Shown here one piece after another: positions 4,310 through 33,301 of a stretch of 39,197 nt of DNA. Numbering within the stretch: the stretch's first letter is position 1; every line of letters starts with the position of its first letter. The stretch comes from a virus. Made by a program: the position numbers and the translations under genes. The notes beneath the pieces are model-generated. The model was given only the letters and a program-made list of their open reading frames with translations, was not told where the DNA came from and did not search any database. The stretch lies in the IMG/VR virus record IMGVR_UViG_3300031669_000098, positions 1 to 39,197 of that record; one strand, written 5' to 3'.

Positions 4310-5719
4310 GTGACCTACTACGAGGACTCGGACGTGGTGCTGCATCTTGGCGACTGCGTTGACGTGATGAAGACGCTCGAGCCGGTGGACGCCATCGTGA
4401 CCGACCCGCCCTACGGCCTTGAATTTATGGGCAAGGAGTGGGATCGGTTGTGGGATGCTCGTGCCAATACTGAATATCGCCGTAAGGGATTTGGGCCTGG
4501 GGTTCTAGCGGCACCTGTCTACAAGGCTGGCCTAGCAGCCCAAGAATGGCACTACACTTGGGCCGTCGAAGCCCTGCGCGTACTGAAGCCTGGGGGTCAC
4601 ATGGTCGTATTCGGCGGCACAAGGACGTTCCATCGGCTCTGGTGCGCGGTGGAGGATGCGGGGTTTGAGATACGGGACAGCGTGGGCTTCCTGGGAATGC
4701 TAGGCTGGATTTACGGCCAGGGCTTTCCGAAATCGCTGGATGTGTCTAAGGCCATAGATATGGATGCTTGCCGAAAGGACTTGACAGAACGATTAGGCAG
4801 AGCGCCAACAAAGGCAGAGTTTAAGGCGGCATGGAAGGGATGGAGGGAAGTGGTGGGACAGGCATGTGATTTTGCCCATGATGGATGTGATAGGAGCGGA
4901 GAGCACGCATCACGGCCAACCCAGCAAGTGCCAAGCGGAGATCGTTGGCATCTGTCTATCACCGCCCCCGCGACCGACGCTGCCCGCCAGTGGCAGGGAT
5001 TCGGGACAGCTCTCAAACCATCCTGGGAGCCAATCCTGCTCTGTAGGAAGCCCATCGAGGGCACAGTGGCCCACAACGTCCTCAAGCACGGCACGGGGGC
5101 GCTGAATGTGGATGCAACACGAATCCAGACGGATGACAACCTAGATGGCGGCGCATATTCAGCAGAAGGCAACCGCAATCCATCATCCTACTTGCTGGGC
5201 GGCGATGCTGGCGAATACAAGCATCCCTCTGGCCGCTGGCCGGCGAATTTGTGCTTGGACGAAGAAAGCGCCAAGATGCTGGACGCGCAGAGCGGGGAGA
5301 GCCGGAGCAGCGACAATCCACGACACAACGCTGACTTTAAGAGCGTTGCCAAAGGATACGAATATGCCCACGTCACGCATGGGCACAATGATACCGGCGG
5401 CGCATCCCGCTTCTTCTACACCTCGAAGGCTGGCCCATCCGAACGCGGCGGCTCCAAGCACCCGACGGTCAAACCCCGCGACTTGATGCTTTGGCTGTGC
5501 AAGCTCATAACCCCACCAGGCGGACTTATCCTTGATCCATTTATAGGAAGCGGCACGACGGCCGTAGCAGCCAGGATGGGCGGGTTTCGGTGCATTGGGA
5601 TAGACAACAACGAAGAGTACCTGTCACACGCCGCTGAGCGGCTGAGGCTGGGAGACGAGGGGCTGTGCCAGGTCAACGAGGCCCGCAAGCATGGGGCCGA
5701 GCAGAGAAGGTTATGGTAG
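4310..5719 (+). CDS. DNA methyltransferase, beta class (N6-adenine or N4-cytosine), 469 aa
   Basis: The GTG at 4310 has GGAGG four bases upstream and overlaps the stop of a 13-codon ORF (4272-4313). Catalytic motif IV is TDPPYGL at residues 31-37. The AdoMet-binding motif I, DPFIGSGTT at 409-417, comes last, preceded by the KHPTVKP motif. This order defines the beta group (CcrM-like, PF01555). DPPY proteins methylate the exocyclic amine of A or C. The long middle (about 120-370) carries the target-recognition part. No restriction endonuclease lies beside it, so it is an orphan phage enzyme, plausibly protecting phage DNA from host restriction or marking it. Confidence 0.92.
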   Translation: MTYYEDSDVVLHLGDCVDVMKTLEPVDAIVTDPPYGLEFMGKEWDRLWDARANTEYRRKGFGPGVLAAPVYKAGLAAQEWHYTWAVEALRVLKPGGHMVVFGGTRTFHRLWCAVEDAGFEIRDSVGFLGMLGWIYGQGFPKSLDVSKAIDMDACRKDLTERLGRAPTKAEFKAAWKGWREVVGQACDFAHDGCDRSGEHASRPTQQVPSGDRWHLSITAPATDAARQWQGFGTALKPSWEPILLCRKPIEGTVAHNVLKHGTGALNVDATRIQTDDNLDGGAYSAEGNRNPSSYLLGGDAGEYKHPSGRWPANLCLDEESAKMLDAQSGESRSSDNPRHNADFKSVAKGYEYAHVTHGHNDTGGASRFFYTSKAGPSERGGSKHPTVKPRDLMLWLCKLITPPGGLILDPFIGSGTTAVAARMGGFRCIGIDNNEEYLSHAAERLRLGDEGLCQVNEARKHGAEQRRLW

Positions 5720-5749: not shown

Positions 5750-6247
5750 ATGGTAATCGAACTAGCAATTGACCTAAAGGATGACATATTGAAAAGGCTA
5801 GAAGGCAGACTAGCCGCCGGCGAATCCCTTGATGAAGCTGTCCTCGTCGTGCATGGGGCGATCACCAGCGAGGGGCTAAGTGAGCGCTTTGTTAAGGAGT
5901 TCGGTGCCCAGGCAATCCGCGATCTCTGGCGGTACAGCAACCGTCAGGCCCGCTCACAGGCATTCTCCATTGGTGACCGCCGTCACGATCCGGCCATTAT
6001 GGCTGAGGGGGAATCGCTATTCGACGCCATCTACAAGATCGGCGATGACTGGATTCGGCTTGGGGAATGCACCAAGGGCATGTGCAAGGAAGCGGCGAGC
6101 TTCTTCAGGGGCCAAGCCTACGGCAACATGAGGGAGGCTTACATGATGACGCAACTGGCGGCCAAACTCAGGGGAGAGCAGACCGTGCGTTCTCATTTCA
6201 CTGAGGATGATGTGAGGACAATTCTGGAAGGGTTCAAGCTGGAATAG
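5750..6247 (+). CDS. Hypothetical helical protein, 165 aa
   Basis: AAGGAGATAGG lies in front of the ATG. The protein appears mostly alpha-helical, with many Arg, Glu and aromatic residues, and has two cysteines (LGECTKGMCKEA) near the middle. I do not recognise the family. Its stop codon lies within the left stem of the first hairpin element of the array that begins at 6241, so its 3' end is part of that structure. Confidence 0.7.
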   Translation: MVIELAIDLKDDILKRLEGRLAAGESLDEAVLVVHGAITSEGLSERFVKEFGAQAIRDLWRYSNRQARSQAFSIGDRRHDPAIMAEGESLFDAIYKIGDDWIRLGECTKGMCKEAASFFRGQAYGNMREAYMMTQLAAKLRGEQTVRSHFTEDDVRTILEGFKLE

Positions 6248-6609
6248 CGGCCAATCCCACGTTGAGACCCATTTCAGGGATGCTGCTATTCCAAGTAGAG
6301 GACGCGGCCACATCTCGCATGAAACCCATCTGGCCCTTGCTGCGTCCTAAGAGAGCCGGGTGCGGCCAGCCGTGGTATGAAGCCCAAGGGCGGCCTGCTG
6401 CACCCGGCGAAAGGAAAGGACAATGAGAGAGACCATCGACCAAGCCCGATCTGAAGCCCAATGCACCATTGTCGATGGTGAGCCCATCGGCCAAACCAGA
6501 GGTGAAGCCCAGACCGCTTCTGTCGATGGTGAGCCAATAGGGAGTGGAGGCGGAAACGGCCATTGGGCGTCTGAAATCCAGAAGCTATGTGCTGATCCTC
6601 TCCACTCCC
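6241..6609 (+). repeat. Tandem array of six structured elements with covarying stems (candidate RNA)
   Basis: Six elements: E1 6241-6292, E2 6299-6348, E3 6355-6408, E4 6432-6479, E5 6484-6529, E6 6540-6609. Each reads stem, GGCC (GACC in E4), exactly 10 nt, TGARRYCCAN, exactly 8 nt, TGCT (TGTC in E4 and E5), matching stem. Cores start at 6263, 6320, 6378, 6452, 6503 and 6572. Stems all differ yet pair: GGAATAGC/GCTATTCC, AGGACGC/GCGTCCT, GCCGGGTGC/GCACCCGGC, ACCATC/GATGGT, CCATC/GATGG, GGGAGTGGA/TCCACTCCC. E6 has unpaired bases between its stem and core. Several elements also have a possible inner stem. E1 overlaps the upstream stop, E2 and E3 are intergenic, and E4 to E6 lie in the first codons of the IS110-like gene. 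No known family is recognised. The orientation (RNA on the + or - strand, or folded DNA) is not decided by the sequence. Confidence 0.85.
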
Positions 6610-7283
6610 TACTCGGCCACTATGCCCGTTTGTTGTGGGACATCCAGAAGCTCCGCATCCAGGTTGGCAACCGTATCAGCGCAATGGAGCGCGACGGCCT
6701 GCTGCCTGAATGGATGGTGCCCCATAATGAGACTTTAAAAGGGCTGGAATCGCAAGAACGCGCTGTCGACCGTCAACTCGTGCGTCTGGCAAAGAAGCAC
6801 ATCATGGCGGATTGGATCGCCGAGTGCCCGGGCATGGCCTATGGCGGCTTCGCCCGTATCGTGGGCGTGACCGGTTCCTTTGAACGCTTCCCTACGGTGT
6901 CTAAGGTCTGGCGTTACATGGGGTTGGACGTTATCAACGGTCACAGCCGCAAGCGTGAGAGGGGCGTGAAGCTGGGATATGCTCCACAAGGGCGCGTTGT
7001 TGCTCACCAGATCGGCGACTCGATAGTGAAACTGGGGCATGGCCGCTACAGGGAGATGTATGACAGAAAGAGGGCGGAATACCTTGCCCGTCCACGCATG
7101 GGGGACTCCAACTGTCCAATGGGGCAGGTTCATAAGGACAAGAATGGCAAGGTGCTTGCATGTGTGAAAGAGGACGGTGAAGGGGAAACGTCGGGCCACC
7201 TTCATAATGCGGCGATGCGCTATGCCGTGAAGATGCTGATCAAGGATATGTGGGTTGAATGGCAAAAACGAGCAAAGCAATGA
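6423..7283 (+). CDS. IS110-like transposase C-terminal domain protein, 286 aa
   Basis: GAAAGGAAAGGAC precedes the ATG. Residues about 55-130 are helical. From about residue 138 the protein matches the C-terminal Tnp domain of IS110/IS116/IS902 transposases (PF02371): CPGMAYGGFARIVGVTG is the helix-hairpin-helix, followed by FPTVSKVWRYMGLD and a C-terminal LHNAAMRYAVKMLI helix. The N-terminal RuvC-like DEDD domain is absent, and I cannot find a serine where the Tnp nucleophile is expected, so transposition by this protein alone is unlikely. Solitary domains like this occur in other phages and mobile elements. Residues 11-43 are a 17-aa tandem repeat (VDGEPIG twice) encoded by array elements E4 and E5. 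Confidence 0.75.
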   Translation: MRETIDQARSEAQCTIVDGEPIGQTRGEAQTASVDGEPIGSGGGNGHWASEIQKLCADPLHSLLGHYARLLWDIQKLRIQVGNRISAMERDGLLPEWMVPHNETLKGLESQERAVDRQLVRLAKKHIMADWIAECPGMAYGGFARIVGVTGSFERFPTVSKVWRYMGLDVINGHSRKRERGVKLGYAPQGRVVAHQIGDSIVKLGHGRYREMYDRKRAEYLARPRMGDSNCPMGQVHKDKNGKVLACVKEDGEGETSGHLHNAAMRYAVKMLIKDMWVEWQKRAKQ

Positions 7284-31593: not shown

Positions 31594-32448
31594 ATGCGCG
31601 GGATCGACGTATCCGTTTACTCTGGCGAGATCACCATAGACCAGTGGCGGAAGGTTAAAGCAGACGGCTATGGCCTAGCGGTAGTGGGCCTGTTTCATGG
31701 CCGGACCGTGAACCGCTACGCTGGGCAGCAGTTGGGGGCGGCTATCCAGGCTGGCCTGAACGTGGCTGCCTACGTCCTGATCGCCCCCTGGACTGGATGG
31801 AACGCTGCCCAGCAGGTAGCAGCAGGACTCGCTGAAGCCCAAGTCTATCGTAGCAGCCTGTGGTTCGTGGCCGTGGACGTAGAGATCGACGGCGTGACGG
31901 GGAAGATGGTAAGAGAAGCCCTGGACGCTGTGAAGGAAATGGGGCATCGGCCTATCATCTACACAGGGGGTTGGTGGTGGCAGAACCGCTTTAACTTCAG
32001 CGATTACCCCCTGTGGGCGGCTCAATATCCCGCCTTCCTGACCGACGAGCCTGAGAACCTACTGCATACGGTGAAACTCTTTGGTGGCTGGACTCGGGAG
32101 AAGCTAGTCGGCTGGCAGTATAAGGGAACAACCGATCTCCACGGGGTCAACTGTGACCTCAATTGGTTTGATGAGACGTTCGTGAAGAGTCAGGAGAAAG
32201 AAGTGATCGAGGATCAGTTCGCGCAATTGCGGGCAACCGAGATGCACCTGATGAACCTGGCCGACGTCGCCCACGGGGTAACGCTGGCAACCCAAATGAG
32301 GATGATCAGCGCCATCCGTCACAACGAGGGCGAGTCCCCAGGGGAAGAGGAGGGCCAATGGGGATGCCTGGCAAGGGCTTACTGCGCCGAGATCAAGGCC
32401 ATCGAAGAGGCGCGGAAACGATGCACATGGATGGGAAGACCAGGCTAG
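31594..32448 (+). CDS. GH25-like lysozyme (endolysin), 284 aa
   Basis: AAGGAGGAGTGCG precedes the ATG. Muramidase fold: GIDVS with D5 at the N-terminus, the catalytic pair D95/E97 in AVDVEID, YTGGWWW (123-129), VGWQY (172-176) and D188 in NCDLN. Residues about 200-284 form a helical C-terminal region with two cysteines and probably bind the wall or aid secretion. It would cut the N-acetylmuramic acid linkage to release phage. There is no signal peptide, so a holin is needed. Its neighbour downstream is the convergent integrase. Confidence 0.88.
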   Translation: MRGIDVSVYSGEITIDQWRKVKADGYGLAVVGLFHGRTVNRYAGQQLGAAIQAGLNVAAYVLIAPWTGWNAAQQVAAGLAEAQVYRSSLWFVAVDVEIDGVTGKMVREALDAVKEMGHRPIIYTGGWWWQNRFNFSDYPLWAAQYPAFLTDEPENLLHTVKLFGGWTREKLVGWQYKGTTDLHGVNCDLNWFDETFVKSQEKEVIEDQFAQLRATEMHLMNLADVAHGVTLATQMRMISAIRHNEGESPGEEEGQWGCLARAYCAEIKAIEEARKRCTWMGRPG

Positions 32449-32461
32449 TGGTATAATCATC

Positions 32462-33301
32462 TTATGAAGCGATGGGCAGGTTGTCGACCGGGGAGTACCT
32501 CGCAAGGCTCCTGAGAGCACGGGCTTCCTGGCCCATCTGTGTGTAGATCATCGTCGTGCCGATGTCAGAGTGCCCTAGGAGAACCTGCAACGAATCGAGA
32601 CCCCCGCCAGCATCCAAGAACCGGACGCTGAAGCTATGTCGGAACTTGTGAGGATTCGCGTGGACACCCGCCTTCTCCCCCACCTGGCGGATCATGTCCC
32701 TGAAACCTCCCCCTGTGATGTCCCAGAGATGGCCGTCTACTCCCCGTAGGTGCGCCTCAAACGCCTCCCGGCAACGTGCGCCCATCCTGACAACGCGCAC
32801 CTTCTGGCCCTTGCCCTGGATGGTGAGCGTCGAGCTAGCGGGGTTGTAGGATTCCAGTTTCAAGGAGAGCAATTCCGCCGCCCTCAATCCACAATCCAGC
32901 AGAAGGCAGAGCATGGCCTTGTTCCGAGTCGGGTTGCGGGTGCGTTCGCTGGCCTCGAAGAGAGAGAGGAGTTCCCCCGTGCTGAAGACTTCTCGGCGTT
33001 GACAAGGCTTCTTTGGCTGACGAACATGAGTCATCGGGCTCTCGTGAATGACGCCCTCCTCGACACACCACCTGAAGAAGCAGGAGATGATGGTGAAGCG
33101 GGCCCGGATCGTGCTGGGCTTGAGGTTCGACAGGCTCACCAGATATGCGCGGAGGTCTTCGGTGGAGACCCGCCGGATACGCCGGCCTCCGAGGAATTGG
33201 GCCAGGTGCGTAAGGTGCTGTCGATAACTCATTATCGTCAGGGGCGACCGCCCTGCGGCCTCTAAGTCGAAGAGGTAAGCCGTGATTATGTCTAACACCA
33301 C
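32462..33301 (-). CDS. int: Tyrosine site-specific integrase, 279 aa
   Basis: GTG start on the - strand at 33301. The N-terminal SAM-like/core-binding domain (about 1-95) contains TIMSYRQHL. The catalytic domain has R140 (CGLRAAELL), K164 region (GKGQKVR), H218xxR221 (HKFRHSF), H244 (LLGHSDI) and nucleophile Y253 (YTQM), the complete R-K-H-R-H-Y set of XerD-like recombinases. It inserts the phage genome at a host attB site. I could not see an attP core. It ends 13 bases from the convergent endolysin. A perfect - strand TATAAT at 33397-33392 lies about 90 bases upstream. Confidence 0.93.
   Translation of the reverse strand: MVLDIITAYLFDLEAAGRSPLTIMSYRQHLTHLAQFLGGRRIRRVSTEDLRAYLVSLSNLKPSTIRARFTIISCFFRWCVEEGVIHESPMTHVRQPKKPCQRREVFSTGELLSLFEASERTRNPTRNKAMLCLLLDCGLRAAELLSLKLESYNPASSTLTIQGKGQKVRVVRMGARCREAFEAHLRGVDGHLWDITGGGFRDMIRQVGEKAGVHANPHKFRHSFSVRFLDAGGGLDSLQVLLGHSDIGTTMIYTQMGQEARALRSLARYSPVDNLPIAS

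What the first reader, a model, noticed from the sequence alone, without database searches (positions are those of the whole stretch)
6241..6609. Array of six tandem structured elements with self-consistent covariation
Six consecutive elements share exact internal spacing (GGCC, 10 nt, TGARRYCCAN, 8 nt, TGCT/TGTC), while their flanking stems differ completely in sequence and yet each pairs with itself. Unrelated stems around one core are what a conserved RNA (or folded ssDNA) motif produces. It spans a stop codon, an intergenic gap and the first 60 codons of an IS110-like gene. I know of no RNA family, BIME, attC or iteron with this layout. IS110 elements carry a guide (bridge) RNA in the 5' non-coding region, so an array at the same place next to a stripped IS110 domain is suggestive.
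Basis: partly seen in the sequence, partly recalled or inferred. Interest (0 to 1): 0.88.

Follow-up and report, generated by a model that had tools for sequence, protein, structure and literature searches.

The report
TIGR guide-RNA array beside phage TasA
The six look-alike hairpins are a small array of paired RNA guides (a TIGR stem-loop array) next to, and half inside, the gene of the phage protein TasA that should carry them to matching DNA; this kind of system was described in 2025, but guides lying inside the coding sequence of their own effector were not, in the text I could read.

Summary
A stem-blind pattern, CCA-N9-TG-N4-CCA-N9-TG, occurs exactly six times in the 39-kb window. All six are in this array and all are flanked by complementary arms (0.155 expected per shuffled window). 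The neighbouring gene (6423-7283) is not a transposase. It passes NCBIfam's TIGR-Tas model (165.8 bits, cut-off 100), its closest fold is TasR 9mty, and it has no nuclease domain, so it is a TasA. Each element is stem / box C (CCA) / 9-nt spacer A / TGARRYCCA / 9-nt spacer B / box D (TG) / stem, the "stem-loop array" type of Faure et al. 2025 (PMC12045711). In 74 Tas loci such box sets occur 379 times on the Tas strand and 25 on the other; their flanks pair at 87%, against at most 57% when arms are re-paired.

New, as far as I could check: units 4-6 lie inside the tasA reading frame, and in 14 other loci units lie in frame inside the conserved domain. In closely related mycobacteriophages the spacers differ by 52-65% while stems and flanks barely change.

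No natural target was found; DNA binding is inferred from characterised relatives.

The parts
6240..6293 (+). Unit 1: 12-bp stem; spacer A 6254-6262 ATCCCACGT; loop repeat 6263-6271 TGAGACCCA; spacer B 6272-6280 TTTCAGGGA
   Evidence: folding z -5.7
6299..6348 (+). Unit 2: 10-bp stem; spacer A 6311-6319 CATCTCGCA; loop repeat TGAAACCCA; spacer B 6329-6337 TCTGGCCCT
   Evidence: z -2.9
6355..6408 (+). Unit 3: 12-bp stem; spacer A 6369-6377 GCCGTGGTA; loop repeat TGAAGCCCA; spacer B 6387-6395 AGGGCGGCC; ends 2 nt before the tasA ribosome-binding site
   Evidence: z -4.0
6411..6415 (+). AAGGA Shine-Dalgarno-like sequence, 7 nt before the tasA start codon at 6423
   Evidence: direct reading of sequence
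6432..6479 (+). Unit 4, inside the tasA frame: 9-bp stem; spacer A 6443-6451 AGCCCGATC; loop repeat TGAAGCCCA; spacer B 6461-6469 ATGCACCAT
   Evidence: z -1.8
6484..6529 (+). Unit 5, inside the tasA frame, diverged copy of unit 4: 8-bp stem with one G-U; spacer A 6494-6502 AACCAGAGG; loop repeat TGAAGCCCA; spacer B 6512-6520 GACCGCTTC
   Evidence: z -2.1
6538..6611 (+). Unit 6, inside the tasA frame: 13-bp outer stem, internal loop, 4-bp inner stem; spacer A 6563-6571 TTGGGCGTC; loop repeat TGAAATCCA; spacer B 6581-6589 GAAGCTATG
   Evidence: z -6.3
6423..7283 (+). tasA, 286 aa: residues 1-56 are array-encoded and predicted disordered; about 57-286 are the Nop-type domain; no nuclease domain
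   Evidence: NF052498 E=1.3e-48; PDB 9mty by sequence E=1.1e-18 and by fold E=5e-8; pLDDT <50 for 1-56; no ATG, GTG or TTG in frame between 6423 and 6630

Best explanation
The six elements are units of a TIGR stem-loop array, and the adjacent gene is its nuclease-less effector, TasA. The transcript should be cut between the hairpins into about six guide RNAs. Each is closed by its own palindromic stem and presents two 9-nt spacers between box C (CCA) and box D (TG). One TasA dimer would bind the two box C/D sets of one guide, and the two spacers would pair with opposite strands of a DNA site reading 5'-A-(0-2 nt)-reverse complement of B-3'. Having no nuclease, TasA would bind, and probably bend, that DNA and so block or redirect its expression or replication, most plausibly on a rival mobile element. 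Shown here: the anatomy, its significance, the protein family, co-occurrence of array and protein, stem covariation, and absence of self-targets. Inferred from characterised relatives: processing, binding, targeting and biological role.
For: Protein: NF052498 TIGR_Tas 165.8 bits against a cut-off of 100; best PDB sequence hit 9mty, which the fold search names as TIGR-TasR; fold hits are TasR, then TasH, and only then the IS110-family recombinases ISCro4 and IS621. RNA: exactly six box sets in the window, all in the array, 0.155 expected by chance. Family: 289 units on the Tas strand against 3 on the other in 75 loci. Without any stem condition, in 74 of those loci: 379 against 25 box sets, arms paired 87% against 55.6% (maximum 57.4%) when re-paired and 25-33% when slid, with all Watson-Crick pair types represented at the stem positions outside the closing box pair. 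26 Tas-less relative loci give 37 box hits in 576 kb of both strands, one with a stem. The five nearest Tas relatives (39-47% identity) have hairpins with the same 30-nt loop. Guide role: in nine cluster A mycobacteriophages spacers differ by 0.52-0.65 while stems differ by 0-0.07 and flanks by less than 0.01. Published geometry and stem-loop array description: PMC12045711.
Against: No transcript, processing or binding data exist for this phage. No natural target was found. The structure model is of moderate quality (mean pLDDT 68, 8-sequence alignment). NCBIfam names the family an endonuclease, but this member has no nuclease domain. No terminator or sigma-70 promoter was recognised next to the array.
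Confidence: 0.9

Rival explanations
1. A decayed IS110 element whose bridge RNA has been duplicated; the units guide, or once guided, recombination.
For: Weak Pfam Transposase_20 match, below the cut-off; shared Nop-type fold with IS621; the array sits where IS110 elements carry their non-coding RNA.
Against: No DEDD domain in the 286-aa protein; TasR and TasH are much closer folds than IS621 (E 5e-8 to 6e-5 against 1.5e-2); units are single hairpins with one spacer pair, in arrays of up to about ten, and are conserved across dozens of intact phage loci.
Confidence: 0.03
2. The hairpins are cis-regulatory elements only (autoregulation of tasA by TasA binding its own leader), not guides.
For: Units 3 and 4 flank the ribosome-binding site and units 4-6 lie in the 5' coding region; units sit in or next to the tas gene in many phages.
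Against: Spacers are fixed in length but hypervariable between near-identical phages while the scaffold is fixed, which pure autoregulation does not explain; stem-loop arrays are processed into Tas-bound RNAs in the published case. Autoregulation may coexist with guiding.
Confidence: 0.05
3. Protein-level repeats: units 4-5 are tandem 17-codon repeats selected for the amino-acid sequence.
For: 51-nt in-frame periodicity and 75% identity of units 4 and 5.
Against: Units 1-3 are outside the frame yet have the same geometry; the encoded segment is predicted disordered; stems covary at the RNA level.
Confidence: 0.02

Closest known systems
TIGR-TasA with stem-loop array (Faure et al. 2025, PMC12045711; Peromyscus gut contig with 13 hairpins)
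   Same: Nuclease-less Nop protein; tandem hairpins with variable palindromic stems; [quoted passage not shown]
   Different: Here loop repeat and both spacers are constant at 9 nt (a near-dual-repeat type); only six units; three lie inside the tasA reading frame, which the published main text does not mention (arrays there are upstream and/or downstream)
Dual-repeat TIGR arrays with TasR or TasH (PDB 9mty, 9w04)
   Same: 9-nt spacers, UG (box D) and CCA (box C) anchors, loop repeat beginning UG and ending CCA, Nop-domain fold
   Different: No conserved edge repeat; hairpin stems instead; no RuvC or HNH domain
IS110/IS621 recombinase and bridge RNA
   Same: Homologous RNA-binding domain; split guide between box-like motifs
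   Different: No DEDD domain, no element ends, no paired two-loop RNA
TasA loci of actinobacteriophages (cluster A mycobacteriophages, Gordonia phages Spooky, BENtherdunthat and Morrissey, Rhodococcus phage Peregrin), annotated 'transposase' or 'hypothetical'
   Same: Same 30-nt hairpin loop (30-33 nt in some units) with 2+9+9+9+1 architecture; units in or beside the tas frame
   Different: Box D usually CG instead of TG; protein roughly 25-32% identical

Membership tests
TIGR-Tas | Tas protein with Nop-type domain of the TIGR clade | tested here: met
   NF052498 165.8 bits, cut-off 100; 9mty by sequence and by fold
TIGR-Tas | Tandem array of units next to the tas gene | tested here: met
   Six units within 372 nt, none elsewhere
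TIGR-Tas | Two short spacers (8-12 nt) per unit, each between box C and box D | tested here: met
   9/9 nt in all six with CCA and TG anchors
TIGR-Tas, stem-loop type | Variable palindromic stems in place of edge repeats | tested here: met
   family-wide covariation
TIGR-Tas, dual-repeat type | Conserved edge repeat giving 36-nt tigRNAs | tested here: not met
   Sequence between loop repeats differs between units except at the boxes and in the related pair 4/5
TasA subtype | No RuvC or HNH nuclease fused to the Nop domain | tested here: met
   Pfam finds only Transposase_20 weakly; residues 1-56 predicted disordered
TIGR-Tas | Array transcript processed into Tas-bound guide RNAs | not testable with these tools
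   Needs RNA sequencing
TIGR-Tas | Tandem-spacer targeting of both DNA strands | not testable with these tools
   Rule taken from PMC12045711; target searches were negative
IS110 transposase | N-terminal DEDD catalytic domain | tested here: not met
   286-aa protein, Nop-type domain only
IS110 transposase | Single bridge RNA with target and donor loops | tested here: not met
   Six independent single-hairpin units
Any Rfam family | Match at gathering score | tested here: not met
   No match in the whole window

The most novel reading that the evidence does not exclude
The guides are functionally nested in the coding sequence of their own effector: excising a tigRNA destroys a tasA message, and TasA bound to unexcised units blocks its translation, so effector level and guide output regulate each other. 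In sister phages a constant scaffold carries interchangeable 9+9-nt guides that change far faster than the surrounding genome, an arms-race cassette without a dedicated acquisition machine.
Probability: 0.3. Interest if true: 0.8.

Novelty: new variant of a known kind. Interest (0 to 1): 0.6.

Why it matters
The biological role and natural targets of TIGR-Tas systems, and above all of nuclease-less TasA, are open questions stated in the discovery paper. This locus and its relatives show two things not described in the text I could read: guide units inside the effector's own coding sequence, and, in cultured mycobacteriophages that grow on a standard laboratory host, spacer pairs that turn over while scaffold and flanks stay nearly constant. 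The second makes the target question directly testable in laboratory phages instead of metagenomic contigs.

Tried and rejected
Rfam: nothing at gathering score. PADLOC: no match to the Tas protein. Self-targeting: the best A plus reverse-complement-B matches in the window have 4 mismatches, as random 18-mers do. Inter-phage targeting: 348 guides against 4.5 Mb (both strands together) of fetched phage DNA give 6 hits with one mismatch or fewer, against 6 in the wrong order and 5-7 with re-paired spacers, so noise. IMG/VR exact target scans for units 4, 5 and 1 gave 3, 1 and 5 contigs; none shares a recognisable protein with the window phage (blank tblastn), so I treat them as chance. BLAST of gap-free targets of units 1, 2, 5 and 6 against 50,697 phage records: no match. 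Cluster A guides: only weak hits; the one recurrent hit (cluster L scaffolding gene) matches the predicted target at 15 of 18 and arises partly across the junction of two joined queries, so I do not claim it. An early idea that two spacer alleles differ only at synonymous sites of one target gene was not borne out by other alleles. Trinucleotide content of 348 guides shows fewer TAA, TAG, TTA and CTA than shuffles, consistent with an origin in natural coding DNA but not specific. Window phage relatives by terminase (26 loci) lack Tas in the 24 records tested and lack the array, so the locus looks like cargo. A narrow unit pattern in IMG/VR found one further phage fragment (L117) with two TG-type units and no Tas match in the held 8.8 kb.

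Full report
What is in the sequence. A search that ignores stems, for CCA-N9-TG-N4-CCA-N9-TG, returns six places on both strands of the 39,197-bp window: 6251, 6308, 6366, 6440, 6491 and 6560, all on the + strand. All six have complementary flanks. Shuffled windows give 0.155 such places on average and none with a stem of 8 bp or more in 200 shuffles. The anatomy is stem, box C (CCA), 9-nt spacer A, loop repeat TGARRYCCA (box D plus box C), 9-nt spacer B, box D (TG), stem. Stems next to the boxes are 12, 10, 12, 9 and 8 bp in units 1-5. Unit 6 has a 13-bp outer stem, an internal loop and a 4-bp inner stem. Units 4 and 5 are 75% identical copies 51 nt apart.

What the gene is. The ORF 6423-7283 (286 aa) scores 165.8 bits with NCBIfam NF052498 (TIGR-Tas, cut-off 100), 70.7 bits with PDB chain 9mty, and only weakly with Pfam Transposase_20 (17.5 bits, cut-off 21.3). 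A model built from window and IMG/VR relatives (mean pLDDT 68) has 9mty (TIGR-TasR) as nearest solved fold, then TasH, and only much further down the IS110-family recombinases ISCro4 and IS621. No nuclease domain is present, so it is a TasA. Residues 1-56, the part encoded by units 4-6, have pLDDT below 50.

What the array is. Faure et al. 2025 (PMC12045711) describe TIGR arrays whose tigRNAs carry two short spacers, each between box C and box D, that pair with opposite strands of one DNA site; 1-2-bp gaps are tolerated. They also describe, in two clades, stem-loop arrays in which variable palindromes replace the edge repeats, shown by RNA sequencing to be processed into single hairpin units in one TasA system. 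Every sequence-level feature is met here. The order of the target (A followed by reverse complement of B) is my derivation from their statement of 8-nt 3' overhangs and of cleavage 5' to the nucleotide paired with the fifth spacer base.

Family-wide tests. Tas homologues were collected from named phages, IMG/VR and bacterial genomes. In 75 Tas loci a unit finder gives 289 units on the Tas strand and 3 on the other; 54 loci have two or more on the Tas strand, none on the other. That finder requires stems, so I repeated it with boxes only on 74 loci: 379 against 25 hits; arms paired 87.1% on the Tas strand and 45.5% on the other; 376 distinct units pair at 87.0% against 55.6% (maximum 57.4% in 500 trials) when 3' arms are re-dealt, and 25-33% when slid; all Watson-Crick pair types occur at every stem position outside the closing box pair. 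Terminase relatives of the window phage were searched for Tas in 24 records, none found; 26 such loci gave 37 box hits in 576 kb of both strands, one with a stem. The nearest Tas relatives (L126-L130, 39-47% identity) have hairpins with the same 30-nt loop, with box C as CCR. Box D is TG in the window and mostly CG in mycobacterial and Gordonia phages.

Guides inside the effector gene. Units 4-6 lie in the open frame of tasA. The start at 6423 has AAGGA seven bases upstream, and no ATG, GTG or TTG occurs in frame between it and 6630, where the domain has already begun. This is not peculiar to the window. After removing two units that fall in N-terminal extensions, 22 units in 14 loci lie inside the conserved domain region, in frame and without stops (a few of these loci may be near-duplicates of one another). 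In several of these, pairs of units sit at one site, between the motif G(Y/F/L)HVL and the motif KR.KG (examples L167, L122, L195, L192, Gordonia phage Spooky). Other units overlap the C-terminal end of the gene in 15 loci. In the window model the corresponding loop (171-184) is one of the low-confidence, probably flexible segments. The main text of the discovery paper places arrays upstream and/or downstream of tas; I could not read its supplement.

Behaviour of the spacers. In nine cluster A mycobacteriophages, homologous units keep stems and flanks but not spacers: mean pairwise divergence is 0.65/0.60 (unit U1, A/B) and 0.52/0.52 (U4), against 0-0.07 for stems and 0.004-0.009 for flanks. 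The same spacer allele recurs with different alleles at the other units, which looks like exchange of whole units between phages. This is the signature expected of guides, and it argues against a purely structural or regulatory role.

Targets. None was found: not in the window, not in 4.5 Mb (both strands) of fetched phage DNA, not convincingly in IMG/VR and not in the phage record collection. Absence of self-targets fits foreign targets but does not prove it.

How it most likely works (inference beyond the anatomy). The transcript is cut between hairpins, TasA dimers bind individual units through the box C/D sets, and the two 9-nt spacers open and hold a matching 18-bp DNA site without cutting it, interfering with a rival element's expression or replication, or acting as a guided DNA bender. 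Because half of this array lies in the tasA message around and after its ribosome-binding site, unit excision or TasA binding should also dampen tasA expression; that step is untested.

Verdict. What appears new is its nesting in the effector's own coding sequence, shared with many actinobacteriophages, and the rapid turnover of spacers in a fixed scaffold among laboratory mycobacteriophages.

Noticed in passing
L003, L037-L055 (cluster A mycobacteriophages): TasA genes annotated 'transposase', 'DNA binding' or 'hypothetical' in 74 phage records carry arrays; in the nine aligned, spacers diverge 52-65% while scaffold and flanks are nearly identical.
   Followed up: partly
L167 5450-5562, L122 5357-5475, L195 5422-5534, L192 4080-4200, L004 3460-3571: Pairs of guide units inserted in frame into the Tas domain at one site, after G(Y/F/L)HVL and before KR.KG.
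   Followed up: partly
L003 2863-2927 and equivalents: One cluster A unit replaces the loop repeat by a small hairpin (CGGC-AACTC-GCCG), a further loop type.
   Followed up: no
L117 2917-3020, minus strand: Phage fragment with two TG-type units but no Tas match in the held 8.8 kb.
   Followed up: partly
4310-5719: N6/N4 DNA methyltransferase gene upstream of the array, likely an orphan phage methylase.
   Followed up: no
32462-33301 (minus strand): Tyrosine integrase, so the window phage is probably temperate; GH25 lysin at 31594-32448.
   Followed up: no
L184 (IMG/VR locus): Large array with units about 42 nt apart, shorter spacing than elsewhere.
   Followed up: no
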